Below, piece after piece: positions 1 to 56,030 of a DNA stretch of 64,000 bases. This stretch comes from Scenedesmus sp. ARA3. Its lineage: Eukaryota > Chlorophyta > Chlorophyceae > Sphaeropleales > Scenedesmaceae. The position numbers and the translations under genes were made by a program. The notes under the pieces are model-generated. The model ran no database searches. It saw only the letters and a list, made by a program, of their open reading frames with translations, and was not told the origin of the DNA. Numbering within the stretch: the stretch's first letter is position 1; the number at the start of each line of letters is the position of its first letter. The stretch lies in the NCBI GenBank assembly GCA_004335835.1, contig RWJK01001684.1, positions 34,085 through 98,084 on the forward strand. Reading direction: 5' to 3'.

Positions 1-225
1 TAATTAACAGGTCAGTGACATGTCGGTGGGCGGTGGATGCCGTAGGTGTCCACGTGGATGGACAGCGGCTCAGCCACACCCATGGCGTACGACACCTGTT
101 ACAAAACAGTAAAGTAACAAGAAAGTGACATAAGTAACAGGTCAGTGACAGTCGGTGAGCGGGTGGATGTCTTGGTTGTCCACGTGGATGGACAGCGGCT
201 CAGCCACACCGATGGCGTACGACAC
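1..225 (-). repeat. Truncated SAMS exon-head copies with acceptor
   Basis: Two copies, 130 bp apart, of acceptor plus the start of the [15 protein letters not shown] exon, beginning at 225 and at 95. Both run into the same non-homologous tail (CACTGACCTGTTA on the minus strand), so neither is the full exon, which must lie outside the window. One copy reads Ile and the other Met in SYAI/SYAM. Confidence 0.75.
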
Positions 226-2077
226 CTGTTACATGACAGGCAAGTAACAAGCAAGTTTAACAGATATGCAGCTTTGTGAGCAGGTCCTTCAGTGGTGGGT
301 GGCACAGGCAAAGAAGCATGGCAAGTACCAGGTCCTTGGGCGATAAGGTGGTGCTACTGCACATCATGCACCTTCCAGTGCTTCCAAACCCTGTGCTGCC
401 CGCAGCTGCACGCGCACAGGCCCCGTCCCTGCAATTCCTACTCATTCCCTCACCTGCACCAGGCAGCGGCGGGCCAGGCCTGCAGCCACCACTGACTTGG
501 CTGCCTGGCGGGCGATGTATGCGCCGGACCTGTCCACCTTGGTGGGGTCCTTGCCGCTGAATGCACCGCCACCGTGTGCGCCCCAGCCACTGCAACACAA
601 GCAGGAACAAACAACAGAAACAACAAGATAAGTAAGTGGCAGCCCCAGCAGCTAGCGGCAATCTGTAGGACATCAGCCGCATAGCAAAAAGCATGCAGGC
701 ATCCGCATCGCACAATGCACTTCCGGCGTGAGTCTGAGCAGGCAATGCTGGTTCATTGCGGCTTGACCTGCAGCTGAACACTCTGCTGCTGCTGCTGCTG
801 AGACCGCCCACACAACCAGCCTTCATGCGCCCTTTGCTGCTGGACAACCGCTGTTGCCGCTGGTTTGCTGCATTGCTGCTGCTACTGCCGCGCGCACCCG
901 TAGGTGTCGATGATGATCTTGCGGCCAGTCAGGCCGGCGTCGCCGTGGGGGCCACCGATCACAAAGCGGCCTGCAAAGTGACACAGCAGCACAGCAGCAC
1001 AACGCGAACATGAGTAAGGACCAACAAGCACCAAAATGCAGCGCGTCAGCCTGTTATCACATGCCTGGCGGTAGCAGTGTGCCAGTGGCATGCAGCACCC
1101 TATACGTCAATAAACATCAATCAATTAGCATGTTCTTCTTCCAAAACACAGTAACATACTCAGCGGAGGGGTTGAGGTGGAAGATGGTCTGCTCGTCCAG
1201 GTACTTCTCCGGCACCACGGGCTTCATCACATCCCACATATGTCGCATCATGTCACATAACAGCCACAATAACAACAAAGTAACAACAAGTGATACTCAC
1301 CGGAGGGGTTGAGGTGGAAGATGGTCTGCTCGTCCAGGTACTTCTCCGGCACCACAGGCTTGATCACGTGCTCCATCAGCTCCTTGTGGATGGTCTCGTT
1401 GCTCACGTCAGGGTTGTGCTGCGTGGAGATGAGGATGGTGTGCACGCGCACAGGCACCACGGCGCCGCCCTCCTTCTTGTACTCCACAGTCACCTGGAGA
1501 AGCAGAAAAAGCAGCAGCAGCAGCAGCAGCAGCGTTACACAGTGCACAGGCACCACGGCGCCGCCCTCCCTCTTGTACTCCACAGTCACCTGGCGCAAAG
1601 GCAGCAGCAGCAGCATAACATCAAAACAAAACCAGTTACACCTGCATCAGCCGTCGAAGCGCAGCCAGGGGCAGGTGCTTTTCTTGCGCCTCTTCCATGA
1701 GCCAAAAACCACCAGAACAGGACATTTGACAACAAAGCACCAACCACCTGCTGCTTGGCGTCAGCGCACAGCAGCACGCAACGGCATATCTATAGCTTCA
1801 ACTTCATACCAAAGAACATAGCATACATCTGGGTCCTGCCGTCTGGGCACAGCCAGCCGCATGCACCGTTGTTGCGGACCTCGGTCAGCCGACAACCAAC
1901 ACAACAGAACATTGACAACAACGCACACACACACCCGCTTCAAGACGTCTGCACGAGGCCAGGGGCGCATCCCTGGCTACATTTTGGAGCCCAGGCACAG
2001 CGCTGACAAGGCACACCACGTGCTGTTGCCAAACAAGCGCTAAGCACACAAGATATTGCACACACAGCACAATTCGC

Positions 2078-2108
<31 letters not shown>

Positions 2109-4242
2109 CGCATGTGCCATTCTTGCGGACCTCCGTCAGCCGACAACCAGCACAACATAACATTGGCAACAAAGCACACACCACCCGCTTCATGGCGTCT
2201 GCACGAGGCCAGGGGCGCATCCCTGGCTACATTTTTGAGCCCAGGCACAGCGCTGACAAGGCACACCACGTGCTGTTGCTGTTGCCAAACAAGCGCTAAG
2301 CACACAAGATACTGCACACACAGTACAATTCGCACCTGTCTTGCCGTCTGGGCGCAGCCAGCCGCATGTGCCGTTCTTGCGGACCTCCGTCAGCCGACAA
2401 CCAACACAGCAGAGCATTGACAACAACGCACACACCACCCACTTCAAGACGTCTGCATGAGGCCAGGGGCACATTCCTGGCTACATTTTTGAGCCCAGGC
2501 ACAGCGCTGACGAGGCACACACACCCGGCTGCTACCAGAAAGCCAGAACACTGCACAAATGCAATCCTCAACCACGCACCTGGGTCTTGCCGTCTGGGCG
2601 CAGCCAGCCGCATGTGCCGTTCTTGCGGACCTCCGTCAGCCTGTAGCCGATCTTGGTGGCCAGCACGTGAGTCAGCGGCATCAGCTCATCTGTCTCGTCG
2701 CAGGCGTAGCCAAACATGTGGCCCTGGTCACCTGCATGCATGCACAGTGATGCGTGGTGAGACTTTGTGTGAATGTGTGTTGCATTTGTGCGTGGGCAGC
2801 GTCGGCTCATCTGTCTCATCGTAGGCATAGCCGAACATGTGGCCCTGGTCACCTGCGGCAAGATAGTGCGCAGTGGCACAGTGTGAGGATGCTTTGAGTT
2901 GCGTGCGTCAGCAGCATCAGCTCAGCGTCCCGTCGATTTCATGGCTCAACATGTGGCCCTGGCCGCATGTTGAGTACAGCATGCACGCACAGGCAAGGAT
3001 ATGCTGCGGGGTTGTGCATATGCTGTATACGCGAGGGGAGGCGGCAGCGACTTCCTGCTCATAAGCATCACACAAGCCGGCTGGCACAGAGCGTCACAGT
3101 ATGTGTGCAGATCCACAGGTTTATGGCTGCACCTTGCTGCTTCGAAGGCTTTTGAGTGCAAATGAGCGGAACTGTGGCCTTTATAGCGGGCGTGATCTGG
3201 ATGATTGCACTGCGAGATTGAAGGCGAGATGCAAGGAAACTACAGCTGTTTGTTCCTGGCGTCAAAGGGCCTTCATTGTCAAAGACGAAATGCAAATGCA
3301 TGCAACTACTGCTGCACACATAACAGCACGCGGGTGCTGCAGCTGCTGCGTTCATACCAGAATTCACGCTGCTGCGCCAGCAGCAACTTTTCAGCTCCTG
3401 CAAGGGCCATTGCCATGTGCTGTCCTGCACACTGTTGCTGTAGCTGCTGTCCTGCAAGCTGCTGCTGTCCTGCAAGCCCCACACACCTGCACCGGTCTCC
3501 TCCAGGGTCTTGGTGCCCATGCCGTGCACGCCCTGGCCAATGTCAGGGGACTGCTCCTCGATGTGCACCAGCACCTTGCAGGTGTCTGCATCCAGGCCCA
3601 CGTCCTCGGAAGTGAAGCCGATGCCCTTGCAGGTCTTGCGCACAATCTCCTCGTAGTTGACCTTAGCCTTGGTGGTGATTTCACCGAAGACCATCACCAT
3701 GCCGGTCTTGGTGGCAGTCTCGCAGGCCACCTACGATTCCGAATGCAATATAGATTGATAAGAGGGCTGCAGGGCGCACGCTGCTGTGCTAGCGGTTCGA
3801 AGCTGCGACTGTTCTAGCGCAGCACACTCTGGGAGCTGGATTCCTGACAAAGGCTGCTGCGCACCTTGGAGAGGGGATCCTGCTCCAGGCATGCGTCCAG
3901 AATGGCATCGGACACCTGCGTCGGGGATCAGCAGGCAGGGGCGAGAAGCACCCGGTCAGCTGCAGTGCGTGCCAGGCGCCCAAACAGGCGTAGGTAGCGG
4001 TTGAGCTGGCCAAGAAGCATAATGCATGTCGCAAAGAAACATTTGCAATCGGTGTGATGAAGGATTGCAACTGCTGCTGCCAGTGCGTGCTCTGGACGAG
4101 GGCCACGCCCCCATGCTCAGCCCCACTGCTGCTGCTCTATGGGAATCTAGCGCGCCCGCACCTGATCGCACAGCTTATCAGGGTGTCCCTCATTCACAGA
4201 CTCTGAGGTAAACAGGAAGTTGTCGCCGTGCAGGTTGGCCAT
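1..4242 (-). CDS. SAMS: S-adenosylmethionine synthetase (partial, 3' end outside window)
   Basis: Makes S-adenosylmethionine from methionine and ATP, a cytosolic enzyme of methyl-donor metabolism. Exons in transcript order with matching phases: 4242-4162, 3915-3865, 3730-3487, 2731-2580, 1493-1301, 970-898 and 589-454. The last exon(s) lie left of base 1; only truncated copies of the next exon head (225 and 95 downwards) are inside. Family signatures seen: N-terminal [17 protein letters not shown] across the exon 3/4 junction, [17 protein letters not shown], the [16 protein letters not shown] phosphate-binding loop, then [13 protein letters not shown] at 4242-4240 gives the usual plant/algal N terminus. 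The introns carry truncated copies of exon ends (see repeats), so automatic gene models will probably be wrong here. Family assignment is secure; the C terminus cannot be seen. Confidence 0.95.
1160..1593 (-). repeat. SAMS exon 5 flanked by truncated copies of both its ends
   Basis: The intact exon is 1493-1301. About 1548-1593 is a second copy of its acceptor and first 15 codons ([13 protein letters not shown]). About 1160-1230 is a second copy of its last 22 or so codons ([18 protein letters not shown]). Both copies sit in the adjacent introns. Confidence 0.8.
1827..2731 (-). repeat. SAMS exon 4 donor-side tandem array (three extra exon tails)
   Basis: The intact exon is 2731-2580. Its last 22-23 codons ([11 protein letters not shown]...DGKT) plus intron sequence recur at about 2335-2404, 2078-2149 and 1827-1898, spaced about 242, 257 and 251 bp. 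Intervening intron sequence (for example the segment with ACAAGGCACACCACGTGCTG) is also repeated. The tails have drifted by a few substitutions; two keep a GT directly after the CAG, and in the 1827 copy it reads AT. Confidence 0.85.
2806..2965 (-). repeat. SAMS exon 4 acceptor-side copies
   Basis: Upstream of intact exon 4, about 2806-2857 repeats its head ([16 protein letters not shown]) with an acceptor, and about 2930-2965 holds a more decayed third copy (ACATGTGGCCCTGG still recognisable). Exon 4 therefore has duplicated segments on both sides. Confidence 0.7.
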
Positions 4243-5607: not shown

Positions 5608-7061
5608 TCAACAGCGTGCAGGCCTTGGCGTGCCCAGGTGCTGCCTAGGTGAGCATGAACCTGCCCTGCTGCTGCACACACCACCACCACCATGTGCATT
5701 AACACCACCTCCACTGGTTGTGGCAGCAGCGGCACCAGCAGCTGAGCGAGGCGTCAATGTGTACGCAATGTTGCAGCAGACTGGCGCCAGCAGGCTGTTA
5801 GCATAAGGGCTCAAGCGTCCACTGGCAGCAGCTGCAGCAGCAGCAGCAGCTGCTCCCCCTGCACTGCTGCTGAGCCTCGTCGGCTGATTTTGATGCCTAG
5901 GTGACGCAGGCACTGCACCTGCTGCCAGCCAGCCACCTTGACTGCTGCTGCAGGTTTCAGCAGGGCTGTTAGCAGCGGCTGCGTGTTCAAGCCTAGGGGA
6001 CATTAGCCTGCCGCAGTCACTGGCACCGCGCTGCTGCTGCTGTTGCTGCTGCTGCATTTGGAAGTGGGGATGGCCCAGCAGGGGCAGCAGCGCCTGCTGC
6101 TGCTGCTGCTGCTGCTGCAGCTGTCCTGCTGCTCTTTTGGCTTCACTTATGCTGCCGCCGCAACCAGCACGGCCAGGAGCCCCACTACCACAAGCAACCC
6201 TGCTGCGCATGCAAGCAACAGCAACAGTGGCCGGCCGCAGCTGTAACGGCTGCCACGGTGAGGCCCTGTCAGCCGCACTGCTGCTACCAGCAACCGTCGC
6301 TGCCCTGGCACTCTTGCTGCCACTGCGATGGACGAAGCTGCGTGTGCTGCTGCTGCTGCCACCAGCAGCAGCTACCGCAGACGCCCTGGGCGTCCCGTGC
6401 AACACTGCTGGCCTGCTGCCGCTGCTGCTGCCGCTGCGGCTGCTGTTCCATCCAGGACTGCCCAACCTCTGCTGCTGCTGCTGCTGCTGGGCAGGGCTGC
6501 TGCTCCTGCAGCTCCCTAAGCCCCCTTCCCGCCCCGCAACGCCAGCCGCAACCGCTGCAACACCACCCCTGCTGCTGCTACTACTATTGCTAGCCGCGGA
6601 CTGCAGCGCTCCCCTGCCACCTGTCAGCAGCGCCTGCAGCAGCCGGAAGTCCTCGCTGCCTAGCCCGCAGTCGGGGTGGCAGGAGGCCTGCAGCTCATGC
6701 AGCTGCCTGCTGACCCGGTGCACCTCCGCAAGGTTCAGCTTGGGCACTGCTGCTGCTGCTGCTGCTGCTGGGGTTGGGGCTGCTGGTGCTGCTGCTGCTG
6801 GGTTTGTGGTTGTGGTTGCACCTGCACAAGGCTCTGCAGCAGGAGCTGCACGTGCAGGCATGCTGCTGCAGGCAGGGGCGCTTGGTTCACAAGGAGCAGC
6901 AGCACCAGCAGCTGCTGATTGCTGTTGATGTGGCTGCTGCAGTGGCGGCTGTGGCGTTTGCGGCAGCAGGTGCTCTGTGTCCTGCTGCTGCTGCTGCTGC
7001 TGCTGCTGCCGCTGCTGCTGCCTGCTAAGGCCTGCCTGCTCTGTAGTGTCGCTTGCACAGC

Positions 7062-7093
<32 letters not shown>

Positions 7094-14796: not shown

Positions 14797-17700
14797 CATC
14801 TGCATCTACCAAGCCGCTGCAACCGCCGGCAGACACACTCGCCGCACCCGCGCCAGCGCTGCTGTTGCTGCTGCCGCCAGCACCGTCGCAATCCGCAGCG
14901 CATATCTCGCCGCTGCTGCAGCTGGTGTTCGGGCTTCCAGCAGCAGCAGCAGCAGCAGCGCCCTTTTCATCCCCTGCCTTAAACACCCGCCGCCACGACA
15001 AGCTCCACTTGCCATACAGCCCCTCAAGCTTCTTCGATTCCCATTTGCGCACATCGCTGCTGCTGCTGCTGCTGTCAGAGCCGCCGGCTGCTGCTGCTGC
15101 AGCTTCCTGGGACTCTACTGCTCGCTCCGCAATCGCGCGCTGCAGCCGTTCCGCAAGGGCTGCGCTCGGCGGCTCGCTGCGCGCGAGGCGCTGCAGCTCG
15201 GAGACAATCTCTGTGAAGGTGGGCCTGCGGAACGGAACGTTCCCAAGCGTTCCGAAGCGTTCCAAGACGTTCCAAACAGGTGAGCAGCAGCAGCAGGGCA
15301 TGCCAAGGTCAGAGCACTGCCTCATCCCATACAGAGGTTGTGTGGGTGTCATGCTCTACAGCATTGCGTGCCCCTGCTGCTGTTGCTGTGCAATCCAGGC
15401 GCTGCTTTGAGCTCTGGTACCATATGACTGGCACTCGCATTCATCACCGTGCTGTTGCAAGGGCCCTGTGCTCCATCTGACGCGCTTCCCTAGGCCAAAC
15501 AGACCACGCACATGCACAGCTCCCAATCGCATCCCCTCACTTGTCCTTTCAGCCATCACGAGCAACAACAACATAGCACAAGCAACAGCGCATCTGAGGC
15601 AAACAAAACCCAACTAAACACAACTGAATCAACTTCAGGACAGCGCACCGCATGTGTGGGTCGTGGCACCAGCACAGATCAGCCAGCTGCAGCAGGCCCT
15701 GCCAGTCCGGGTTGGCCTTCAGCTGCGGCGGCCAGGCTGGCCGCAGCTGCTTGTTGATCACGCAGTGGCCCAGCAGCGGCTGCGGCACGTCTGCAGAAAG
15801 AAGCGCGTTTTGTTTGTGTTGTGAGTACCAGCATATGTGCCGAGCAAGGAGGGGCAGCGCAGCTGCTTGTTAGATGGAAGGAAGCCACGCGGCTCCCTTC
15901 TATCTTTGTTGATCACACAGTGGCCAAGCAGCGGCTGCGGCACGTCTGCAGTGGGCACAATGAGGGAAACAAGAAAAAAGCTGTAATGTTGATCTATCTT
16001 TGTTTGTGACGTCGACAATGCGGCAGGCGGGCCGCAGCTGCTTGTTGATCACATAGTGGCCAAGCAGCGGCTGCGGCACGTCTGCAGAAAGAAGCGGGTT
16101 TTGTTCGTGTTGTGAGTACCAGCATATGTGCCGAGCAGAGAGGGGAAGAGCAGTATTGGTTGAATACGCAGTGGCCAAGCAGCGGCTGCGGCACGTCTGC
16201 AGAAAGATGCGTGTTTTGTGTGTGTTGTGAGTACCAGCATATGTGCCGAGCAAGGAGGGGCAGCGCAGCTGCTTGTTGATCACACAGTGGCCAAGCAGCG
16301 GCTGCGGCACGTCTGCAGTGCGCACAATGAGGGAAACAAGAAAAAGCTGTAATGTTGATCTATCTTTGTTTGTGACGTCGACAATGCAGCAGGCGGGCCG
16401 CAGCTGCTTGTTGATCACGCAGTGGCCGAGCAGCGGCTGCGGCACATTTGCAGGAAGGCAGCAGACCTGGTCTAATAGCTGACCAAGGTGATATACATAT
16501 ATATAATCCATTCAACAAAACCCAGGATTCTGGAAACTTTTGTGAAAAACAACCAATGTTCTAGTTAGTCTTGCCTCTAGTGAAACTCTCATCAAAGGAG
16601 GTCTTTGGCGAGTTCACTAGAGGCACTAGAGGCACAACTTAAGTAGAACATTAGCATTCTTCACAAAAGTACCCGTGATCCTAGTTTTGTGCAAGGGTCT
16701 CGAGAGGCATAGGCAAAACCAACATCACAATACCAAATCAGCGACAAACTTAACCTTCATGTACCAACCTGCAAAACGCTTGCTGTTTGTGGCCATATCC
16801 CACAAAAGCACGCTCACAAAACAAGAACAGCAACGCCATGCAGCAAAGAAGCAATGTATGGTCTCAGACCTTGTGTTCAACCTGTTGTGGCTCATGGTGC
16901 CCGGACCCACATGTAACTATCCTCTCTCAAATGTGCCAACCTGCGACGCGCTTGTTTTGGTTGCCAGCTCCCACCGCAGCATAACCCTAGAACAAGCTCG
17001 GCATTGCAATGCAATCAAAAAGCAGCACAACAACCTGCGAAGGGCTTGCTGTTGGTGGCCAGCTCCCACAGCAGCACACTCGTAATACAAGAACAGCAAC
17101 GCACTGCAACAGCAGAGACTACAACCCTCCAGCAAAGTTTATAGTCAAAGGCAAACAACACATTACAAACCGAATAATTGGTCAACCCCAACCGCAAAAA
17201 CTTCAACCAACCTGCAAAGGGCTTGCTGTTGGTGGCCAGCTCCCACAGCAGAACGCTCACGAAACAAGAGCAGCAACGCCATGCAGCAACAAAGCAGTGC
17301 ACCAGCCTGCAAAGACGGCTTGTTTTTGTTGCCAGCTCCCACAGAAGCACAACCCTAGAACACGCTCGGTATGCATTGCGACAACATAGTAGCACACCAA
17401 CCTGCAAAAGGCTTGCTGTTGGTGGCCAGCTCCCACAGCAGCACACTTGCAACACAAGAACAGCAACGCACTGCAACATCACCCTCAGCAAAGTCCAGAA
17501 CCACAGGCAAAGCCAATGTTACAACACCACATAATTGATGAACCATACTGCAAATAACAACCCCAACCCACCTGCGAAGGGCTTGCTGTTGGTGGCCAGC
17601 TCCCACAGCAACCTCACAAAACATGAACAACAACGCACTGCAACAGCAACGACTACAACCCTCAAGCAAAGCTGAGAGTAAAAGGCAAACAACAACATTT

Positions 17701-20700
17701 CAATCAGATAAGCCCAACCGCAAACAACAACCCCAACTCACCTGCAAAAGGCTTGCTGTTGGTGGCCAGCTCCCACAGCAGCAACCTCACAAAACAAGAA
17801 CAGCAACGCACTGCAACAGCAAAGACTACAAGCCTCCAGCAAAGTTGAGAGTCAAAGGCAGAGCCAACATTACAACACCAACATATTGATGAACCCAACC
17901 ATAAATGACAACCCCCACCAACCTGCAAAAGGCTTGCTGTTGGTGGCCAGCTCCCACAGCAGGATGCCGTATGCATACACGTCACTGGCCCTGCTGCAGC
18001 GCCCATGCATCAGCAGCTCCGGCGCCTGCAGCAGCAGCAGCAGCAGCAGCGGCAGCAGCAGCAGCAGCGGCAGCAGCAGCAGCAGAAGCAGCAGCAGAAG
18101 CAGCACAAGCAGCAGAAGCAGCAGCATAAAAGTATGAACAGATACTATACAGCACGCATGTGCAAATCGGGCAGGTAGCACAGCACAAACATGGGACTTG
18201 GCGTGTTGTGTTGGCTGGACTGTTGTACTGCCACTAGTCGGCTGGCCCCATCCAGAAAGGCTGTGCTTGGGGCCGGCAACATGCTGTGTTGTTGTTGGCT
18301 GTTGCGAGTGCTTTATGTCACCACATTGTGCACACAGCGCCATGCTCAAGCTGCCACAACTCAAGCATCGCAGCCCAGCACGCTCCATGCCTATGTGGCA
18401 AGCTGTTACGTAGGTGTGTGCAGGGTTGACAGGCAAAAGCTGGCTGAGCGCCTACCATGTGTGTGGGTGTGCCGCAGGCCTTGGTCATGTGCGTCGCCCC
18501 TGGGTCTAGCACAGTGCTAAGGCCAAAGTCAGACACCTGCGGCAGTATGCACAGTTGCGCCAACTCAGCGTCCTTGATTGTGCCTGTTACTTCAAAAGCG
18601 CTGATCGTCGACCCAGGAAAGCGTCGAAACGCACATCATGCGCTCGTTGATGGTGCGTGCATAACAGCAGGATTCAGCTCGCAACTGTTTGTGTGGCGCT
18701 GGTCAGGCAGCCGCAAAGGATGATACTGCTGCCGTGCAGGACGTCCATCAATAGCAGGAGCCAGCAGAGGTCATCATCATGCAACAGTGACACCAGGCAT
18801 TCTGAAAAGAATGCAGTGACGGCAGCTGCAAATGCCAAACCATCAGACAAACTGAGTTGAACCCACCTTGCCCGCCAGCTGCCCATGCTGTATAAGGCTC
18901 AGCCTGCTGACCCTGCTCCGTGCGCTGCCGCTGCCGCTGCTCTGCTGCACGCCCCTGCTGTCATCGGCATCGCCGCTGCCGCCGCTGCCGCCGCTGCTGC
19001 CTGCGTTGCTGCTGCTGTCGTAGTTGGTGCGCCTGCCGCTGCTGCTGGTGGCCGACATGTTGAGCTTTAACAAGACATTAGAGGCCTTCAGGTCGCTGTG
19101 CAGCACCTTGTTCTGCGGCAGGGAAAAATAGTAAAGCAGCAAGAACAATGGCAGCACGATCCTGTTGGTTCATAGCCGGCAGCAGAGCAGCACATTTGAG
19201 GCGTTGAGGTCGCAGCACCTTGTTCTGTAGTGCAAGACAAACAACACATGACATAACAATTAAGAAGTGTCAGCGCAGGATATTTGTTTTTGTGCACACT
19301 ACAGAAGACGTTTGCGGCTGCTGAGCACATCAGTCACAACAATGTCTCCCGTAACATGCAGCAAGCAAGCATACAAAACACTCGACCTACAACCAGCTGC
19401 AGCGCACACTGTGAGCAGCCAGCTGCAGAGCAAGAGGCAGCAACACGCGCACTGTTTGATATATCATGTGCTGCGCAGCTATAACCCAGCCAGATACCTA
19501 GAACAGGGCGCACGCTGCCACACGCACCTTTTGAAGGTACTGCATTGCACAGGCCACGTGCACTGTTCATGTGATGTGCTGCACAGCAGCCAACTCAGCC
19601 AGACAGGCGCATGCTGTGCTGCCACACGCACCTTATGAAGGTACTGCATTGCACAGGCCACGTGCAGTGCCAGGGCCAGCAGGGTGGGCTTGTGATTGAG
19701 CCCGGTGCTACGGTCCACCAGCAGGTGCGCGTTGAGCGCGTCACGCAGCGTGCCCTGCAAAACACAACACAATCAGGCAACTCAGTACCGCAAGGCAACT
19801 CAGTACCGCATATGACTGCTCAGGCGGTCTACCAGCAGGTGCTCGTTGAGCGCGTCGCGCACAGTGTCCTGCACGCAGAGAGACAGCAAGGCAACTCAGT
19901 ACTGCATATGACTGCTCAGGCGGTCCACCAGCAGGTGCGCGTTGAGCGCGTCACGCAGCGTGCCCTGCACAGGCACACAATCAGGCAACTCAGTACTGCA
20001 TACAACTGCTCAGGCGGTCTACCAGCAGGTGCGCGTTAAGCGCGTCACGCAGCGTGCCCTGCACGAACAGAGACAGCAAGGCAACTCAGCAGCCCACATC
20101 GCTGCACAGCAACATGGTGGAGCTTGCACTACAACCAAAGACGGCTGCATGCATGCAGGAGAGCTGCCCATGCAGTCAACCAGCAGGTGCGCGTTGAGCG
20201 CGTCACGCAGCGTGCCCTGCACATACACACACCAATAACAATGATGGCAACTCCTTGCGTACCGCATACCATTGCTCAGATATGGACAGAGTGTGAGACA
20301 CAGCTGCCTGTCCTTGCAGGGCTCGCAGCATTGCATATCATTTGAACATTATAATACCAAAGTGACGCATGGAGAGACACCATGACAAAGCAACGCCTAC
20401 TCCAGCCCTTGCACCAGACTAAGCCTGCTGATGCACCTTGTCGGGTGTCATGTCACAAATGTTACATAAACAATAAAAATATAACGCACCTGGTCGCAAT
20501 ACTCCTGGATGATCTGCATCTCCCAGGGCACCAGGTCAGGGTTGCTGCTGGCCACGCCTGCCTGCCTGTGGGCCTTAAAGGCAGGGTGCAGCGAGATGCT
20601 GTACACTGCCACCAGGTTGGGGTGGCACATGCTGCTGCCGATGGCGGCTTCCTGCATGATCACAAGTGATGTTGCGGGTAGGAAGCACTGGGTCAAAGCA

Positions 20701-38057: not shown

Positions 38058-38164
38058 CAACCCCTCCTCTGAGCCCAAGCCAGCACCAGGGATCTTGGGG
38101 CAGGGCTGCTGCTGTGTCTCCATGCCAGCTTGGTAGCCCAGGTGCACCAGGGTTTGGGTGTTAA
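31209..38164 (+). CDS. Large Ser/Ala/Gln-rich protein, unknown function
   Basis: Seven exons with consistent phases: 31209-31248, 31453-31992, 32197-32369, 32572-33543, 33797-34109, 34302-36694 and 36833-38164, giving 1920 residues. It is mostly low complexity. Notable parts are a basic-cysteine motif KKKGVFACCFGGG (near 33025-33063), a Glu/Gln/Arg helix likely to form a coiled coil near 34600-34730 (LEKQLAVERRLAEQQ), a basic block near 35640-35880 with KSPKPPSQQRPKTYRAFYRQ, and a poly-Gln C terminus with 16 pure CAG codons near 38008-38055. There is no signal peptide, membrane helix or recognisable catalytic domain. A scaffold or regulatory role is possible but not shown. The first exon encodes only 13 codons before CCAG|GTGAGA. 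Confidence 0.8.
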
Positions 38165-45692: not shown

Positions 45693-48600
45693 CTGGGCCT
45701 GCGCAGCAGCATCACCTGCTGCTGCTGCTGCTGCTGTTTCTTCAGGCCCTGCCGGCGCTGCTGCACGTGCAGCAGCAGCAGCAGCTGCGGTTTGGCCACT
45801 GGTGTCCAGAGCCTGCATGAGGCTAGTCAAACCAGCAGGCGAGCCGAGCCCAGCAGACTGCTGCTGCTGCTGCAGATCTTGCAGCGGCTGCAGCGTGCCT
45901 TGCTTGCCAGCAGTGGCAGCAGGTCGAGGTGCAGCAGCAGCAGCAGCAGCAGCAGGGCTGCCAGTGCCTGAGCTGCTGCTGCTGCCGTTTGCTGCATACT
46001 GCTGGCCCATCACAGCAGCAGCAGCAGATGCAGGAACAGGCACATCATCCAGTTCCATAACCTCAGCAGCAGCAGCAGCAGCAGCAGCAGCGCCTGCTTG
46101 CTGCATGCGCTGCATACCGTTGCTGCTAGCAGCAGCAGCAACAGGCAATCCCTGATCCTGCTGCTGTCTTGCATCTGTCTGCCTGGCAGCTGCCACATCG
46201 CTCTCATACAACTGCTGCTGCTGCTGCTGCCGCTGGCCGTTTGCTGCTGCGGCAGCTGCACCAATGTGAGCAAGCTGAGCATCCCTCAGCTTGGGGTTGA
46301 GGTGGCCTGCTAAGCCCTGCTGATGCACGCCCACTATACCCTGCTGCTGAACCGCAGCTGTGCCTGATGGCCGGCTCAGTCTGCTAAGCCTGCTGGGGGC
46401 ACCGCCAGCAGCAGTAGCAAGCATTGACATCCCCGCTGCTGCCATAGCAGCAGCCTTACCGGCTGCGGGCCTTGGTCCATAGCCATACCCTGCTGCTGCT
46501 GCTGCCACGCCGCCGGCAGCATCATCACTGCTGCCCCTGAACCCGAAGCCCTGAGGTCCCTCCGGCCCAACCGAAGCAGCAAAACCGCCAGCAGGCAATC
46601 CCTCAAAACCCTGCATCGCTGGCATGCCATTACCGGCTGAACCGCCAAACCCGGCATGCTCTGTACCGCCTATACCTGCGGATCCTCCAAACCCTGACAT
46701 GCTGCTTAAACCGCTGCCGCCGGCACCGTTAAACCCCAGCCCCTCGACGCCGCCGCCGCCACCCACAAGACTCAGCGCCCTGTATGTGCTGGAGGTCCCA
46801 CCGCCAGCAGCAACAGCAGGCGCGCCGCCGCCGCTGCCTCCACCCCATCCCCGCTGCTGCTGCTGCTGCTGCTGCTGCTGTGCGGCATGCATTAGAGCAG
46901 TGAAGATCGGGGACTGTGACCCTGCCGGCTGTGCTGCTGCTGCATCGCTGGCTGCGGGCAGTTCGCCGCTGTTTTGCCGTCCAGATCGTGTGCCGTTGCT
47001 GCCGTTGCCTGATATTGCTGGCTGCTGCACGGTGGTTAGCAGGAAGCCCTTCATGACTGGCACAAACACCTGACAGCAGCAGCAGCGGCAGCAGCAGCAT
47101 GACATAGCACATGATGAGATGGCACATCAGGAAATCGCACATGATGAGATGGCGCATGATCAGATGGCACATTTAAGATGACACAGAGGACGATGACATA
47201 AGATGAGATGGCACATCAGGGTGCTGCCGCATAAGTCAGCGCTTGCTCACTGATATTAAACCAATACCACCAATGCCCCCTCCCCAAAAGCATGAGATGG
47301 AGGTGAGATGCACACAAAGAGCACAGCGCTGCTCACCGCGTTGTAGAAGGCGATGATGTCGCCCGTGGCCTGTGTGACCAGGCCCGGGTCGGTGCGCTGC
47401 AGCGCCACGCTGCGGAACGCCTCCTGGCGCGCGTGCGCCTGGCGCTTGTAGTGGCTGATGATCTCGCGGAACGTTATCTGCGGGCGTTACATAACAATGT
47501 GATAACATTGTCAGATCCAGAACCTGTCGCTGGTGATCAGATGTGCGGCAGATGCCATGATTGACAAGATGGCGATACGAAGCCATAGATCAGACCAGCA
47601 ACACACCAGGTATTTCAGAGCCTTCAGCACACATCCCTAAAACCGCACCTGGTGCAGCCAGTTGACCTTGCAGTAGCCGTACAGGCTGGCCAGCAGCAGC
47701 GTGTCAAAACTGCATTTGCACTGTAAACCACAACCCCCAGAACCCCAAACACCCAGCCTAAACCGCACCTGGTGCAGCCGGTTGACCTTGCAGTAGCCGT
47801 ACAGGCTGGCCAGCAGCAGCGTGTCCAGGTGGCGGCCGTAGAAGAGGTGCGTGTGGCAGTACAGCGCGTGGCCCAACACCTCGTGCACTGCTGCCAGCAC
47901 CTCCTCTCCCTCCATAGGCGAAAAGTCCAGCCCGTGGCTGCAGATAAACAACAGAAACAACAACAGCAGCAGGTCAGATGGGCTTTGTGTTGTTATGATG
48001 TGGTTTGGGGTGCGGCAGCAGGTGTCCCAGCACCTCGTGTACTGCTGCCAGCACCTCTTCACCCTCCATTGGGGAGAAGTGCAGCCCATGGTTGCAGGTA
48101 AAACACAAGATACACAACAGAATCAACGACAGCAGCAGGTCAGATGGGTTTCGTGTTGTTATGATGTGGTTTGGGGTGCGGCAGCAGGTGTCCCAGCACC
48201 TCATGTACTGCTGCCAGCACTTCTTCTCCTTCCATGGGTGAGAAGTCAAGGCCGTGGCTGCAAGTGGGGAGCGAATTAAACAAGGGCAGAAATGGGCGTG
48301 AAACAGACAGACAGGGTGCACGCAGTGGCGGCGCAGGCAGCAAAACACAGCAGAAGTCAGATGGGTGCTTGTTTTCCTTCAAGGTGTTTGTGGCCCAGCA
48401 CCTCATGTACTGCTACCAGCACCTCCTCACCCTCCATTGGGGAAAAGTCAAGCCCGTGGCTGAAAAAACAGCACAAGATACAAGACACAAACGACGGAAG
48501 CAGCAGGTCAGATGGGTTTCGTGTTGTTTTTGGTGTGTTGTGGTGCGTGACGGCTTATCCCAGCACCTCCTGCACTGCTGCCAGCACCAGGGTGCTCACC

Positions 48601-50128
48601 CTCCCAGCTGAGAGTCCAGACCGCGGCTGCAAAACAATGCACAAACAGAATGCAAGGGGCAGAGCTTACAGCACATGAGACAACTGTCCTCACCTGACAG
48701 CCACCAGCCTGAACGCCGCCAGCTTGAGCAGCTTGCGGCAGTGGTCGTGCAGCACCGCACTGGCTGCACAAACATATTCCACACTGTAATAAACACTGTT
48801 AAAACACTCACCTCACAGCCACCAGCCTGAATGCAGCCAGCTTGAGCAGCTTGCGGCAGTGGTCATGCAGCACCGCACTGGCTGCACAAACATATTCCAC
48901 ACTGTAATAAACACTGTTAAAACACTCACCTCACAGCCACCAGCCTGAANNNNGCCAGCTTGAGCAGCTTGCGGCAGTGGTCGTGCAGCACCGCACTGGC
49001 TGCACAAACATATTCCACACTGTAATAAACACTGTTAAAACACTCACCTCACAGCCACCAGCCTGAACGCCGCCAGCTTGAGCAGCTTGCGGCAGTGGTC
49101 GTGCAGCACCGCACTGGCTGCTCATACAACTTCTACACTGTTACAAACACTGTTATAACACTCACCTGACAGCCACCAGCCGGAACGCAGCCAGCTTCAG
49201 CAGCTTGCGGCAGTGGTCATGCAGCACTGCACGAGCCGATGCATCACCGCCAGGCGGCAGCGGCGAGCCAGGAGCACCGATCGCCCTTGGCAGAGGATGC
49301 TCGGGTTCAGCTGGAGCAAAGGCCTCTGCAGCATGCGGGTGTGAAGCCACACCACCGTCTGCTGCTCGCTGCCGCTTGGGCACTAGGTCAATGTTTGTGG
49401 CGTCTGCTGCTGCTGCTGCTGCTGAGGAGTCTTGCTCCATGGGTGCCGGTGAGCCACGAGAATCGGCAGCAGCAGCAGCAGCAGCCTCGCTGCCAGGTGT
49501 AGCACGCTTGCGCGAGCCTGCTGCTTGCTGCTGCTGCTTCTGATCCGTATCTTCTGCCTGCTGCTTGTCAGCAGCTGCCGCAGGTGCAGCTCCCTCTGCC
49601 ATGTTTGCATCCTGCTGCTCGGCAGAGGCAGCGGCATCACCTCCTGCAGACCCGCCAGATGCTGCCGGCTCGGCCGCGCCCTGCTGCTGCTGCTGGCCTG
49701 CTGCTGCTCGTGCCAGCCTGTAGAAGCTGCTGCCAGGGGCCCAGCCCAGGCTCTCCAAGATCTTCTCTTCCACCGTGAACATGTGGCGCTTGAGCTCCCT
49801 GCAACAATATTAGAAGAAGACAAAAGTCACAGTCATGAAAACATTTCAGGCTCTCCAGGATCTTCTCCTCAACAGTGAACATGTGGCGCTTCAGCTCCCT
49901 GCAACAAACCGCAAGGAAACATCATTATTCACTATGTTTCATTCTCTGAAACGTCAGGCTCTCCAGGATCCTCTCCTCCACGTTAAGCATGTGGCGCTTG
50001 AGCTCCCTGCAGTAGACAAACATCAACAAGTTCCCGATCAGCAACAACAATTCACTTGAGGAGAACAGGCCAGGCTCTGCAGGATCTTCTCTTCCACTGT
50101 AAACATGTGGCACTTGAGCTTCCTGTTT

Positions 50129-50164: not shown

Positions 50165-53100
50165 AATGTCCAATGACAAAAGGCCCAATAAATTGCTCAG
50201 GTCAGCGCCCAACTCAGCCCATAGCTAATCAACTCAACCACAACCCTGCTCGACTCACCTGGGCAGGCTCGGCACCGCCTTCACAAACGGCCCGATCATC
50301 TTGCTCAGGTCAAACGGCTCAACCCCAACCATACTTGATTCAACTCAGCACAACTTTGCAACCTACTCAACTCACCTTGGCAGGCTGGGCACCGCCTTGA
50401 CAAACGGTCCGATCATCTTGCTCAGGTCAAAGCGCTTCAGGCCCAGCTTTCCGGGAATAGCAGGGAAGGACAGCAGGCCCATGCGGTAGGCAGCCGCCAC
50501 CAGCTCGAAGCAGCTTTAATAACAATGGCCCGATCACTTGCACAACTCAGCACAGCCTATTCAACTCTAAGCAAACCCCGCTCAACTCAAACCCTCACCT
50601 GGGCAGGCTCGGCACTGCTTTCACAAACGGCCCGATCATCTTGCTCAGGTCAAAGGGCTTCAGCCCCAGCTTGCCAGGAATGGCAGGGAAGGACAGCAGC
50701 CCCATGCGGTAGGCAGCCGCCACCAGCTCGAAGCAGCAGGCCAGCAGGCACTGGTGGAAGGGCCAGCGCGTGAGCAGCGAGCAGGCTGCGGGCAGGCCTG
50801 CACGAGCCTCCTCGGCGCGTAGCATGGTGTCCAGCACATGCCAGTAGATCTTGATGCCCTGCATATGGGTGTGTTGAGTGTGTGTGCAGAGAGAGATGGC
50901 GGGGATGTGAGGGCAAGCAATGACAGGAGGGTTGTGATACAGGGGCCAGATGGTATGCAGTGCGCTGCGTTACCTTCAGCAGTGAAACAGCACGTACAGC
51001 ACACAATATGCATGCAACACACTGCACTCCCTGCAACAAACAGACAAGTAGCAGCAGCAGCAGCGCACCTCGTCCCGCCGCTCCTGCGCCACCCCCTGCT
51101 GCAGTTCAGGGAAGCCCAGCCGGCTCCCCGCGCCCGCAGCAGCGCCGACACCACCACCCAGAAACACCGCCGCAGCAGCCGCCGCCACCCTCTCGGACAA
51201 GATGCGGCCGGCATCTGCCCCTGCAGCATCCATGATGCGCTGCACTGTGCCAGGAGGCTGCAGGGCGAGCTCCTTCACTGTGTTTTTGAGCCAGGCCACT
51301 GACCCCATGGCTTGGCTGATAGGTGTGGCTGGCCCCGGATGGCCGAGTTGCATCAGCGGCAGCGGCGACTGCAGCCCAATCGACAGCGGCCGCCGCGCGG
51401 CAGCAGCAGCAGCAGCATTTGCGGCAGCAGGCGGCGCCAGCGGCGGCTTCGCAGGGTGCTGCTGCTGAGCGGGATGTGAATGTGAGGCGCTGCTGCTGCC
51501 AGCGCCTGCTGCTGCTGCTGCTGCTGCAGCGGCATGTGTGGCGGCTTGCGCGAGGCTGCTGAGGGTGCCGGGCCCACCGGCAGCAGCAGCAGCAGCAGCT
51601 TGGTGTGGCAGTGCTGCTGCTGCTGCATTGTCTGCGCCTGGCAGTGTGCGAGGGCTTGCGAGGCCTCCAAAGTCGTGCAGCAGGAAGTCTCGCTCGTCAA
51701 TCTCGCCCTGGGTTGCAAGGAATTTGGAGTAGGCCTCATCCAGGCTCAGCACCAGCTCCGACAGCTGCTGCGGCTTGCTGGTCAGGCCCTCCACGTACAG
51801 CCTGCAGCAGCAGCGGCAGCAGCAGCAGCAGCGCAATGCAGTTGAGCAGGGCAATCATACAGCAAGCCGAGCAGACAGACCAATGCGGCTTGCTGGTCAG
51901 GCCCTCCACGTACAGCCTGCAGCAGCAGCGGCAGCAGCAGCAGCAGCAGCGCAATGCAGTGAACTAGGGCAACCATACAGCAAGCCGAGCAGACAGACCA
52001 ATGTGGCTTGTAGGTCAGGCCCTCCAGGTACAGCATGCAGCAGCAGCAGATGAACATACCTCAAGCGGAGCTGACAGTGCAGTGCGGATTGTCATATCAC
52101 AACAACAAGGCGCATGTTTGCATGTACATGTGAGTGCAAGCACACAAATCCTCTCGGCATCATAGCACAGCACGACACATGAATCACAATGGAAGCTCCG
52201 TGATTCGCACTCGGCCGCACTCCCACCTGCAGCAGGTCTCCAGCTTGTCGGCCTGTGGGTGTGGCCGCCTCATACATTTTTTTCTCAACCAGCAGAAACA
52301 ACAGCCATCAACATCTAATGACCGCCCGCTCACCTGCAGCAGGTCTCCAGCTTGTCGGCCTGTGGGTGTGGCAGCGTTGCGGGCAGCGGCTGCGGCAGCC
52401 ATCCCAGCTGCGCCTGGCCCAGGCTGCCCCAGAAGGCGTCCTCTATCTGCGGCATCAGCGCCTGCACACAACAGACAACAGAAGGCGGGGCAGCAGCAGC
52501 AACAGCAGCAGCAGCCAAGGTGAGGCAACAGCAGGGCAGGCAGCAGCCAGGCTGCCCCAGAAGCGTCCTCTATCTGCGGCATCAGCGCCTGCAGGGCAGC
52601 AGCAGCAGCAGCTGAGGCAGCAGGCGCAGCAGCAGCAGCAGCAGCAGCAGATGAGGCAGCCGCAGCAGGTGGCAGCAGGGTAGGTAAGAGCAACCGTAGC
52701 AGGTGACATGGCCGCTGGCCTCAACGCCGCTGTCAGCCGCATATTACAACAAAAAAACACGATTCGCTGCCACAATTATGGAAGAAATTTGAATTACTTT
52801 GAATATGAATTCAAATTCAAACTCTGAAATGACAACCGCACCTATTTCTTGCCGTAGTCCACGCGTGCCTGAATGCACAGCGCCTTCAGCAGGCTGAACC
52901 TGCACTGGCCCTCTACATTTGTTACAAACCCCAAAATAACATAAAAACGACACCGCGTTTCAAATTCAAGCTTCAAAATGACAGCCGCACCTTTGCCTTG
53001 CCGTAGTCCACGCGCGCCTCAATGACAGCGCCTTTGAGCAGGCTGAAGCGCCCGCTCGCCCTGAACAATCGCCACAAACCCCACAATAACAGAAGTAACA

Positions 53101-56030
53101 ATGCATACAGTCATTCAAACTTCAAAATGACAGCCGCACCTTTGCCTTGCCGTAGTCAACGCGCGCCTCAATGCACAGCGCCTTGAGCAGGCTGAACCTG
53201 CCACTGGCCTCGATGGCAGTGGGTGAGCCAGACTGCAGGGCAGCCAGCTGCTGCTCGCAGGCTGAAGCGCTCACTGGATGCAACATGTGTCACAAAACCC
53301 CAAATCAACACAATCAAACCTGGTCTTTTCTGTGTTCTAAATACCAATCATCACATATTCAATGTCGCACCTTGTCTTTGCTGTGGTCCAAGCGCGCCTC
53401 AATGCACAGCGCCTTGCGCAGGCTAAACCTGCTGCTGGCCCTCTACATTTGTTACAACCCCAAAGTAACAAAAAGTGACACTGCTTACAAAATCAAATCC
53501 AAATTGACAGCCGCACCTTTGCCTTGCCGTAGTCAACGCGCGCCTCAATGCACAGCGCCTTGAGCAGGCTGAACCTGCCGCTGGCCTCAATGGCAGTGGG
53601 TGAGCCAGACTGCAGGGCAGCCAGCTGCTGCTCGCTGTAAGTGGTGCTGGCCAGCAGCAGCGCCAGCACACACACCAGCAGCTCCAGGCAGCTGCGGCAC
53701 GGCAACGCAGAAGCAACACCAAACAGCAAGCAGGCAGCAAGGTGCAGCACGGTCAGAGGTCCGCTGTGCTGGGTTTGGAGGTGGGTGCTGGCCAGCAGCA
53801 GCGCCAGCACACACACCAGCAGCTCCAGGCAGCTGCGGCACGGCAACGCAGAAGCAACACCAAACAGCAAGCAGGCAGCAAGGTGCAGCATGGTCAGAGG
53901 TCAGCTGTGCTGGGTTTGGAGGTAGGTGCTTGCCAGCACACACACCAGCAGCTCCAGGCAGCTGCAGCACGGCAGCAAGGGGGACAGAGGCAGTGTTCAG
54001 AAAGTGATACTGGTAGTAAGGAGGCAGCAAGGGCGAGCATCGTGCTGGGTTTAGCTGTGCTGGGGTGTGAGCGCGTGTGCTTGGCTGTGGCGGTGGCGTT
54101 TGCTTGCACTGCAACTGCACGTGATCAGCCGTCAATGTTTGAAAGCTGCTGCAAGGTACCCAAAGCATTGCTGCAGCGAACGAGTGCATTGAGGCTGAAG
54201 CCGAAATCACTGCTGCGGCCTTGCCATTGCCGCGGCCTGACTCGCTGCCGCTGCTGCGGCTGCATGTTGTGTAGCCTGCACTGCAACTGCATGCCCGCAA
54301 CTCCCTCCCTGTGGCTGCTGCTGCTGCTGCTGGCCCCTGCTTCTGCGCTTGCTGCAGACCGCTGCTCAACCAATGCTGCTGCTTCTCCTACCACAACCGT
54401 GCCATAGTGCGACTGCTGCTGCTGCTGCTGCTGCTTCAAATGCTGCTACTGCCTTAATTGCTGCGCCCGCTGCCACCGCTGCTGCCACCGCTGCTGCTGC
54501 TCCTGCTGCTGTTGCCGCTGCTGCTGGCCGCACCTGACAAGGTCTGGGAAGCCTGGCAGCAGCTGCGCCTTCACCACCAGGAAAGCCAGCCAGCCTGCGC
54601 GCAGCAGCGGCTGCTGCGGCTGGCTGCTGCTGCAGCTGCGCTGCACGTGCCAAAACAAGTCCTGCAAGCAATGCAAGCAGCAGACACAACATCAGATGAT
54701 CAGCCGCAGCAAGGACTCAAGTCAACCCACAAGTCAACCTATAGTTATGCATATGATGACGCATGAGATAGGGTGGGTCATATAGGGGCTGCGGTTTGGT
54801 GTCACGAGAGGATCAGGTGACAGGTGGTTGGCGTGGTTGGTGATATGATAGACAGTGCTGATCTGCGCAATGCCTCTGCTGCTGGTGCTGAAGGAGCTGC
54901 TACGCTGCTGCTGCTGCTGCCTCTACCGCACTGATCTGATATGCTGTCTCCTGTGCGTTGAGCCATTTGCTGCAGTGCTGGTTAGCTTTGAGCAGTGCTG
55001 ATCCTGTTGCACGCTGTGCTGCTGGTGCAATACATAAGGTTGCATTGTTGCTGCTGCTGCACTGCTATGATGATGCAATTATCCTTTGGCATCAAGCAAC
55101 CCGTTGCAGTGCTGCCTGTAGCTTCACCCATCACGTCAGGTGTCGATTGATCGAAGGATTCAATACAGCGCATGTGCGATTATGTGCTACTGCGGCTCGC
55201 GGGTCACCATACTTTACCCCCAATTACCACTGCTGCTGCATGCCACTGCTGCGTGCCCCTGCTGCAAGGCACGCACCTTGTACTTGTTGCTGATGTGCTG
55301 CAGCGAGACCAGCGTCTCCTGCCACTCCCGCAGCCGCAGCTGCTGCTCAATGTTGTCAGCTGCGCTGCCTGCTTGCTCCAGCAGCGTGGGCTTCAACTTG
55401 TTCAGCACCACAGGCAGTTCTTTGAAGAACGAAACCAGGCTGCAGACGGACAAACGGAAGCATTTAAAGAAAGTAACGTGATTGGCCAGGCGGACGGAGG
55501 GAATATGCAGGCATTTGCCGGGAACAGTCCACCGCTGGTGCTTTGCTGCTGCTGCAAATACACTTGCTGAGCTGCCGCTGGCCGGCTGGCTGCAGCATGT
55601 TCGAGGGCTTGAGATTCCGCTTGGCTAAACGCACTTGGTGTGGGATGTGCTGAGCAGCTCGCTCAGCGGCAGGCCTGCAGCAGGTGGCTCCCCCGCCCTG
55701 GCGCCATCAGCAGGCTGCTGCTCCGGCTCGCCCAGCAGGCCTGGAATGCTCTTAATCAGCCAGACAATGCATGGGCGCCAAACATCCTCGCCAGACTCCT
55801 GCGATCAGAGCCACAACGTTTGGCAGAGAGCGCGGGATGTGCTCGCACTAGTGCCACCGGCCAGCTCGCCGGCTGCTTACCACTGAAAGCGATGCCGAAG
55901 ATGGTGACTCAGACTCCAGAACGCGACAGCAGGCTTCATACACCGCTGTGGCGCGAGCTGCCTGGCCATCTCCCCCTCTCAGGCGGTCTTTTAGCAGCGA
56001 CAGCATATCAATCTGCTGCTGTGCAGCCAT
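45606..56030 (-). CDS. MAT3: Retinoblastoma-related protein (RBR/MAT3)
   Basis: Represses E2F/DP-driven cell-cycle genes; in green algae the orthologue couples division to cell size. Twelve exons, all phases consistent: 56030-55881, 55798-55635, 55439-55277, 54661-54534, 53691-53517, 52461-52334, 51801-51069, 50858-50599, 49798-49166, 47937-47769, 47477-47337, 47069-45606; about 1435 residues. The N-terminal domain shows SFFKELP and AGWLAFLVVKAQLLPGFPDL. Pocket A, about residues 455-690, shows WHVLDTMLRAEEARAGL, FELVAAAYRMG, FDLSKMIGPFV and ELKRHMFTVEEKILESLGW. Pocket B, about 830-960, shows RHLDTLLLASLYGYCKVN, FREIISHYKRQ and DIIAFYNAVFVP. A low-complexity spacer separates the pockets, and a tail of about 475 Ala/Gly/Gln-rich residues follows. 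It is longer than human RB1 (928 residues). Ten or so junctions carry duplicated segments, so gene predictors will add false exons. Confidence 0.95.
47640..48630 (-). repeat. Arrays on both sides of RBR pocket-B exon 47937-47769
   Basis: Four truncated heads (HGLDFSPMEGEEVLAAVHEV type) with acceptors end near 48097, 48261, 48464 and 48628. One truncated tail (TLLLASLYGYCKVNWLHQ and donor) is at about 47648-47705. The head copies share an intron spacer (AGCAGCAGGTCAGATGGG), so whole exon-intron units were copied. Confidence 0.9.
48691..49235 (-). repeat. 118-bp donor array of RBR exon 49798-49166
   Basis: The donor-side tail (CRKLLKLAAFRLVAV and donor) starts at 49163 in the intact exon, then at 49045, 48927, 48809 and 48691. 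All four steps are exactly 118 bp. The units are nearly identical. Four N at 48950-48953 replace four bases without changing the period. Confidence 0.95.
48950..48953. other. Four ambiguous bases (N) in a repeat unit
   Basis: Unlike a sized gap, these look like masked or unresolved bases, since the 118-bp period is preserved across them. Confidence 1.
49755..50125 (-). repeat. Acceptor array of RBR exon 49798-49166
   Basis: Three truncated heads (ELKRHMFTVEEKILES type) upstream of the intact exon end near 49900, 50008 and 50120. Two keep a TGCAG acceptor; the outermost has an acceptor made of a CTG repeat. Confidence 0.85.
50190..50645 (-). repeat. Donor array of RBR pocket-A exon 50858-50599
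   Basis: Tails of this exon (FDLSKMIGPFVKAVPSLPR, donor GTGAG) recur at about 50385-50515 (long copy, includes YRMGLLSFPAIPGKLGLK) and 50262-50322. A trace is near 50195-50210. Confidence 0.85.
51785..52045 (-). repeat. Acceptor array of RBR exon 51801-51069
   Basis: Two extra heads (LYVEGLTSKP) with CTG-repeat or TGCAG acceptors start near 51922 and 52038. The copied unit also carries the intron segment CAAGCCGAGCAGACAGACCA. Confidence 0.85.
52215..52610 (-). repeat. Arrays on both sides of RBR exon 52461-52334
   Basis: One tail copy (PTGRQAGDLLQ in the alternative frame; HPQADKLETCC in frame) is near 52225-52275, and one head copy (ALMPQIEDA) near 52555-52600. Confidence 0.75.
52840..53990 (-). 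repeat. Arrays on both sides of RBR exon 53691-53517
   Basis: Four donor-side tails (FSLLKALCIEARVDYGKAK type) occur near 53370-53445, 53149-53275, 52990-53060 and 52850-52915. They are clearly diverged, and the 53149 copy is longer than the others. Two acceptor-side heads (CLELLVCVLALLLAS) start near 53840 and 53965. Confidence 0.85.

What the first reader, a model, noticed from the sequence alone, without database searches (positions are those of the whole stretch)
1..54000. Exon-intron junctions are selectively multiplied as tandem arrays in several genes
In the SAMS, receptor-kinase and RBR genes at least twenty junctions have one or more extra copies. Each unit carries part of an exon plus adjoining intron: either exon heads with their AG, lying 5' of the intact exon, or exon tails with their GT, lying 3' of it. 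That is exactly what repeated tandem duplication of a junction-spanning segment gives. Copies are diverged to different degrees, yet most splice sites are kept. Tandem duplication of splice-site-bearing segments is a recognised route to new introns, but this density and regularity is unusual. Inference: duplications inside exons are removed by selection unless in frame, while junction-spanning ones are hidden by splicing, so introns grow by junction copying and gain decoy or alternative splice sites.
Basis: partly seen in the sequence, partly recalled or inferred. Interest (0 to 1): 0.88.

Follow-up and report, generated by a model that had tools for sequence, protein, structure and literature searches.

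The report
Exon-end copies crowd algal introns
In the genes looked at in this green alga about half of the introns carry extra copies of the end of the neighbouring exon together with its splice signal, and few repeats of any other kind, which suggests that exon ends keep being copied into the introns beside them.

Summary
The genome is Tetradesmus obliquus or close kin. In 15 modelled genes 67 of 141 introns carry 173 extra exon ends beside their own exon (85 donor-side, 88 acceptor-side). Such introns are twice as long (median 561 against 287 nt). Repeat arrays are tied to exon ends: 93 include one, 1 does not, where random placement predicts 39-58% without. Exon parts stay about 91% identical, but similarity collapses at the splice site (0.93 at intron base 3, 0.44 at base 6), even around copies 95-100% identical. 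Junction-spanning duplication plus neutral decay does not predict that, and hiding by splicing protects intron-only repeats equally. Best reading: local duplication at junctions, then exon-anchored array turnover that refreshes exon-derived segments from the constrained exon while spacers decay. Copying bounded at birth by the splice site is the main rival. Nothing indicates use: differences look near neutral, offsets ignore frame, AG|GT is not enriched. Three genes (24 introns) have none. No RNA, reads or second strain were available.

The parts
2580..2731 (-). SAMS exon 4 (intact), source of both tail and head copies
   Evidence: gene model
1641..2395 (-). four extra tail copies of SAMS exon 4, donor site at 2333, 2079, 1828 (GT lost), 1640; matches of 86-87% run through the first spacers
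2788..2967 (-). two extra head copies of SAMS exon 4 (copy exon starts 2967 and 2852), 5' of the intact exon
1301..1493 (-). SAMS exon 5 (intact)
1544..1589 (-). extra head copy of SAMS exon 5
1164..1230 (-). extra tail copy of SAMS exon 5, match 96% over 75 nt; its GT at 1163 reads CT
169..225 (-). extra head copy of the SAMS exon at 39-95
   Evidence: tandem repeat 1-256
51884..52034 (-). two extra head copies (starts 52034 and 51916) of RBR exon 51069-51801
50599..50858 (-). RBR exon 3 of the model (intact)
   Evidence: aligned to P0241
50258..50514 (-). two extra tail copies of RBR exon 3 (139 and 69 nt of exon; GT at 50375 and 50257)
49847..50122 (-). three extra head copies (starts 50122, 50006, 49898) of RBR exon 49166-49798
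48694..49114 (-). four extra tail copies of RBR exon 49166-49798 in a 118-nt array (GT at 49047, 48929, 48811, 48693); holds N positions
48016..48624 (-). four extra head copies (starts 48624, 48459, 48257, 48091) of RBR exon 47769-47937
47649..47705 (-). extra tail copy of RBR exon 47769-47937, one difference in 57 exon nt, flanks without detectable relation
16766..17962 (-). receptor-kinase exon tail (presumed intact about 17931-17959) followed by 8 extra copies, 7 of them ending in GCAG|GT
20608..21350 (-). receptor-kinase exon head: 3 extra copies 5' of the presumed intact one at about 20648
21934..22240 (-). receptor-kinase exon head: 2 extra copies 5' of the presumed intact one at about 21963
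19700..20240 (-). receptor-kinase array of repeated acceptor plus exon-head segments

Best explanation
Each array starts with a local direct duplication over an exon-intron junction (offset of the nearest copy mostly 118-154 nt). Splicing hides it. From then on the real exon, which selection keeps unchanged, is a permanent matching partner. Slippage, unequal exchange or conversion between exon and copies makes the array grow into (exon end-spacer)n-exon end, shrink again, and in doing so renews the exon-derived segments. Spacers have no such master and decay. So exon ends with their splice signals persist in introns, similarity stops at the splice site, and intron-only duplications, which have no master, fade from view. 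Shown: the anatomy, the junction bias, the cliff at the splice site, arrays with near-identical spacers, and, in a small subset, exon parts less diverged than their spacers predict. Inferred: the refreshing process itself and the initiating event.
For: 67 of 141 introns with copies. 93 arrays with an exon end against 1 without. Identity cliff at the splice site. Arrays of the form E-X-E-X-E with spacers up to 98% alike but an outer flank that was not matched. Among 42 nearest copies whose similarity stops within 14 nt, spacer and outer flank are still detectably related in 9 at p<0.05 (about 2 expected), so a true tandem duplication lies behind at least some. In those 9, exon parts differ at 43 of 565 sites where about 76 are expected from the spacer rate (p=8e-6). 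Flanks of the outermost acceptor copies still look like acceptors in the 39 of 48 where an AG was found, as common descent would leave them. The nearest copy is on average closer to the exon than the farthest (0.085 against 0.116 in 41 arrays, Wilcoxon p=0.047).
Against: In 33 of 42 bounded cases no spacer relation is detectable at p<0.05, so the founding tandem duplication is unproven there; for one copy identical over 68 exon nt the 108-nt spacer has no second match in the assembly (that search skips common words). The near-far gradient fails a sign test (22 against 16, 3 ties, p=0.42). In arrays with closely similar spacers (divergence up to 0.15) exon parts are not less diverged than spacers (0.094 against 0.097 in 12 exon-copy pairs, 0.094 against 0.072 in 16 copy-copy pairs). 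The one search test rests on weak local alignments, and in three of the nine (RBR 2, CCT8 2, CCT1 7) the aligned stretches include other exon-derived pieces (and read from the sequences). Homology of 30-70 nt is short for recombination (general knowledge).
Confidence: 0.5

Rival explanations
1. Splice-site-bounded copying: one event copies 30-140 nt of exon end up to the splice signal into the adjacent intron (or inserts a new spacer with that stretch duplicated), for instance by template switching at splice-site-like microhomology, so the boundary at the splice site is made at birth.
For: Boundaries cluster at +3..+9 and -3..-6 even at 95-100% identity; intron base +4 is copied more often than chance (0.70 against 0.34) while +6 is nearer chance (0.44 against 0.31); no detectable flank relation in most bounded cases; intron-only equivalents are scarce.
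Against: Some bounded cases keep spacer homology on both sides; many arrays repeat their spacers; I know of no DNA process that stops at splice sites; the one spacer searched has no source elsewhere in the assembly.
Confidence: 0.25
2. One reading: ordinary tandem duplication of junction-spanning segments, kept because splicing hides them, followed by neutral decay.
For: Tandem arrays with repeated spacers in SAMS, RBR and others; single-copy differences are near the neutral mix (93 synonymous to 94 non-synonymous, added by hand from the table); where spacers are recognisable (divergence up to 0.25) exon to spacer divergence is 0.097 to 0.166 in 37 pairs, close to the neutral ratio.
Against: The cliff at the splice site and the scarcity of intron-only arrays, 1 of 94 where 39-58% are expected.
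Confidence: 0.12
3. The copies are functional, as decoy or recursive splice sites, and selection keeps exon ends and signals.
For: Splice dinucleotides are kept at 0.90-0.95 and flanks of outermost acceptor copies score near true acceptors; exon tails ending in CAG|GT could serve as dual-specific sites.
Against: Dinucleotides are kept no better than exon positions; AG-ending donors and GT-starting exons are not enriched among sites with copies (p=0.69, 0.71) and offsets are spread over all three frames; single-copy differences are near neutral; three genes have no copies.
Confidence: 0.09
4. Assembly artefact.
For: The window holds 54 Ns, some inside the RBR 118-nt array.
Against: Copies differ from one another and obey exon polarity; 12 of 15 genes, on 11 of 14 contigs, have them; most spacers are not repeated.
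Confidence: 0.03

Closest known systems
[quoted passage not shown] Gao and Lynch 2009 and Hellsten 2011 as cited in PMC4974935; the potato RdRp case itself)
   Same: Local direct duplication of sequence with splice signals; the potato case even copied an intron-exon structure (passages of PMC4974935 read).
   Different: Here, by the gene models, no new intron arises: copies pile up inside existing introns beside their own exon, in both polarities, at about half of the introns examined.
Dual-specific AG|GT splice sites and the UBC tandem array (PMC10809524, abstract and outline read)
   Same: Tandem repeats bounded by sites usable as donor or acceptor; many donor copies here end in CAG|GT.
   Different: Junctions with copies are not enriched for AG|GT, and the repeats are partial exons inside introns.
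Tandem repeats near intron-exon junctions in green algae (PMC3887541, passages read)
   Same: Repeats concentrate towards intron ends in Chlamydomonas and Volvox.
   Different: In the passages read the repeats are described by motif (such as GT/AC dinucleotides) and position; copies of the adjoining exon are not mentioned there. Here 30-140 nt of exon plus splice signal are copied.
Introner elements and transposon-derived introns (recalled; named in passages)
   Same: Could add intron sequence at many loci.
   Different: No shared element seen: 91 spacers match mainly their own locus among the 354 kb held, and the one spacer searched has a single match in the 87 Mb assembly.

Membership tests
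[quoted passage not shown]
   Copies lie beside existing splice sites; 11 of 43 donors with copies do not even end in AG
[quoted passage not shown]
   Homology-based models put the copies inside one intron per gap, but no RNA was available
Junction-spanning tandem duplication (reader) | Copy lies on the correct side of the intact exon with its splice site | tested here: met
   172 of 187 overlaps reach the matching end of the adjacent exon
Junction-spanning tandem duplication (reader) | Similarity continues into the intron across the whole unit | tested here: not met
   Cliff at the splice site on average; met only in the subset of arrays with repeated spacers
Introner or other mobile element | Inserted sequence shared among loci | tested here: not met
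   only 1 of 91 spacers was searched in the whole genome
Dual-specific splice-site array | Copies bounded by AG|GT | tested here: inconclusive
   32 of 43 donors with copies end in AG against 68 of 98 without, p=0.69
Dual-specific splice-site array | Sites are used in RNA | not testable with these tools
   no RNA data

The most novel reading that the evidence does not exclude
A copying process that recognises exon ends: it places 30-140 nt of exon, cut at the splice signal, into the adjacent intron at a typical offset of 118-154 nt, at both intron ends, and so has lengthened about half of the introns examined. The boundary would be made at birth, implying that splicing complexes, nascent RNA or splice-site microhomology guide DNA duplication.
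Probability: 0.25. Interest if true: 0.92.

Novelty: new variant of a known kind. Interest (0 to 1): 0.74.

Why it matters
It offers a genome in which intron lengthening leaves a legible record: each event carries a piece of a known exon. If exons act as master copies for repeats in their own introns, constraint on exons shapes intron length and decoy splice-site load. If copying is bounded by splice sites at birth, a link between splicing and DNA duplication would be directly testable in a culturable alga. It also matters in practice: decoy exon ends next to real ones can mislead gene prediction, and splicing here must ignore strong, near-identical sites about 120 nt away.

Tried and rejected
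Zero-length exons: with a weak intron penalty my aligner placed empty AG|GT exons at array units; a higher penalty removed them. Coding constraint on copies: the raw count over 170 copies looks synonymous-rich (494 to 350), but one exon change is counted in every copy; single-copy junctions, added by hand, give 93 to 94. Gradient of copy age: weak. Blind test of splice motifs at repeat ends in 15 kinase loci and window 8000-47000: uninformative (21 of 35 against a null of 0.546), because CAG is so common here. Second copy of an RBR stretch: only short repeat-type matches elsewhere in the assembly. Intron-only repeats at match level: one search merges nested matches into arrays, so I recounted single matches: of 239, 181 have an exon side, 44 compare two exon-derived copies, 13 lie partly or wholly in the span of exon-end arrays, 1 is free. 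Array counts by minimum identity: 93:1 (no limit), 66:4 (85%), 51:1 (90%), 23:1 (95%). Dropped before counting: 2 chaperonin-60 models (poor), locus L049 and the kinase loci (not modelled), 9 of 150 introns failing the splice-site filter. One search counts 44 donors, 49 acceptors and 68 introns under a looser rule; require the copy to lie wholly in the intron (43, 48, 67). The dinucleotide counts snap to the nearest GT or AG and are inflated; I rely instead.
Full report
What was checked. The window lies in an 87.3 Mb, 1567-contig assembly. A draft HSP70 from it is 100% identical (rounded) over 578 residues to a Tetradesmus obliquus record (P0131), and the RBR gene model aligns to residues 1-792 of a 794-residue T. 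obliquus protein (P0241); T. obliquus or close kin is therefore the source, strain unknown. A published table gives T. obliquus UTEX 393 57% GC and a mean intron of 462 nt, against 230-302 nt for the three other Sphaeropleales and Chlamydomonas listed (PMC5966456, passages read).

Gene models. I wrote a spliced protein-to-DNA aligner and modelled 17 genes: SAMS and RBR in the window, five HSP70 and ten chaperonin genes elsewhere. Two chaperonin-60 models were poor and dropped. The 15 kept genes have 150 introns, of which 141 pass a splice-site filter. Models for five of the eight kept chaperonins rest on a distant profile, two on a protein of another or unnamed organism, and several HSP70 models on a paralogue; none is checked against RNA.

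The observation. Counting copies that lie wholly inside an intron, 43 of 141 donors have 85 copies and 48 of 141 acceptors have 88; 67 of 141 introns carry at least one. Of 187 scored exon-intron overlaps (offsets up to 2500 nt), 172 are a tail copy downstream or a head copy upstream of the adjacent exon, 2 cover whole exons, 6 reach no exon end, 7 copies lie outside modelled introns, and none sits in a non-adjacent intron. One inverted match is found with the same settings. Introns with copies have a median of 561 nt, those without 287 nt (p=6e-14). The Pfam hit tables, which do not depend on my models, show partial repeats of the same polarity, read by eye and not exhaustively: C1492 and C1032 in the chaperonins, C272 and C1075 in HSP70, and C1086, a kinase outside the modelled set. 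Three genes with 24 introns have no copies.

Junction bias. Grouping repeats into arrays, 93 include an exon end and 1 does not; with a minimum identity of 85, 90 and 95% the counts are 66:4, 51:1 and 23:1. Random placement with the observed offsets gives 39% intron-only if introns are shortened by their arrays, 58% with present lengths. Because grouping can swallow nested repeats, I recounted single matches: of 239, 181 have an exon side, 44 compare two exon-derived copies, 13 lie partly or wholly within exon-end arrays, and 1 is free of them. Even if those 14 were all intron-only, they are 14 of 195 after leaving out copy-copy pairs. So hiding by splicing, which protects intron-only duplications equally, does not explain the bias by itself. 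A caveat: purely intronic copies decay on both sides, so they fade sooner.

The cliff. Against their source, copies keep 0.85-0.95 identity at the 20 exon positions next to the donor and 0.82-0.97 at those next to the acceptor, 0.94 and 0.95 at GT, 0.93 at +3, 0.70 at +4 (chance 0.34), 0.44 at +6 (chance 0.31) and about 0.35 from +10. On the acceptor side identity is 0.90-0.95 at -3 to -1, 0.74 at -4 (chance 0.68) and 0.45 at -6 (81 donor and 88 acceptor copies, no gaps allowed past the junction, so indels add to the drop further in). Many matches of 95-100% identity end at +3 to +9 or -3 to -6. For 84 copies whose match stops there, the 60 intron bases beyond rank only slightly above unrelated introns (mean rank 0.62 and 0.58). 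Comparing the full nearest spacer with the outer flank, 9 of 42 bounded cases show a relation at p<0.05 (about 2 expected), against 32 of 49 of the others.

What this says about mechanism. Plain tandem duplication with neutral decay predicts about one and a half to two times the exon divergence in the spacer; the collapse seen on average is far larger. In the 9 bounded cases with a detectable spacer relation, exon parts differ at 43 of 565 sites where about 76 are expected (p=8e-6; weak alignments, three with other exon-derived pieces inside). In arrays with recognisable spacers the ratio is near neutral (0.097 to 0.166), and with the closest spacers there is no difference. Arrays have the form exon end-spacer-exon end-spacer-exon end, with inner spacers up to 98% alike and an unmatched outer flank. 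I read this as array growth and shrinkage anchored on the exon, which renews exon-derived segments. The alternative, copying cut at the splice site at birth, remains open for the 33 bounded cases without detectable spacer homology. One such spacer, 108 nt beside a copy identical over 68 exon nt, has only its own match in the assembly.

Function. I found no support for use of the copies. Single-copy differences are 93 synonymous to 94 non-synonymous (added by hand), near the roughly 39-46% synonymous that I estimate for a neutral copy beside a constrained exon. Splice dinucleotides are kept no better than exon positions. AG-ending donors (32 of 43 against 68 of 98) and GT-starting exons (15 of 48 against 33 of 93) are not enriched, and offsets are spread over all three frames. 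Outermost acceptor copies keep acceptor-like flanks in the 39 of 48 where an AG was found (score 1.76 against -1.68 for other CAGs and 2.53 for true acceptors without copies), which common descent or function could both give.

Prior work. Nine searches of an open-access library listed no paper whose title or shown abstract start describes arrays of exon ends within introns; subscription papers are not covered. Nearest are intron gain by tandem duplication (passages of PMC4974935 and PMC3443670; only reference-list matches seen in PMC3488318), dual-specific splice sites (abstract of PMC10809524) and a survey of tandem repeats near junctions in algae (passages of PMC3887541). In the main text of the Scenedesmus 46B-D3 genome paper the word intron was not found (PMC7955037, term search).

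Limits. The sample is two gene families plus two window genes, not random. Copies were found by BLAST, which favours complex, conserved segments. No RNA, raw reads or second strain could be examined.

Noticed in passing
HSP70 loci G000:C1383 and G000:C74, chaperonin zeta locus G000:C837: These three genes have no exon-end copies in 24 modelled introns, while others of the same families have many; expression level or intron age might differ.
   Followed up: no
window 5608-7455, 34238-38164 and others: Long open frames rich in glutamine, serine and alanine runs from CAG/GCA-type repeats; one of 1308 residues at 34238-38164.
   Followed up: no
window 48694-49114: Short N runs lie inside the 118-nt RBR array, so that part of the assembly is uncertain.
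   Followed up: partly
L046 (C1032) 8468-9232: A donor-side array of about 107-nt units whose copies end in a strong AG|GT, so that a lenient aligner read zero-length exons there.
   Followed up: partly
window 52810-53258 and 53366-53635: Further repeated exon-like segments upstream of the start of the matched RBR protein; possibly more 5' exons with copies, not modelled.
   Followed up: no
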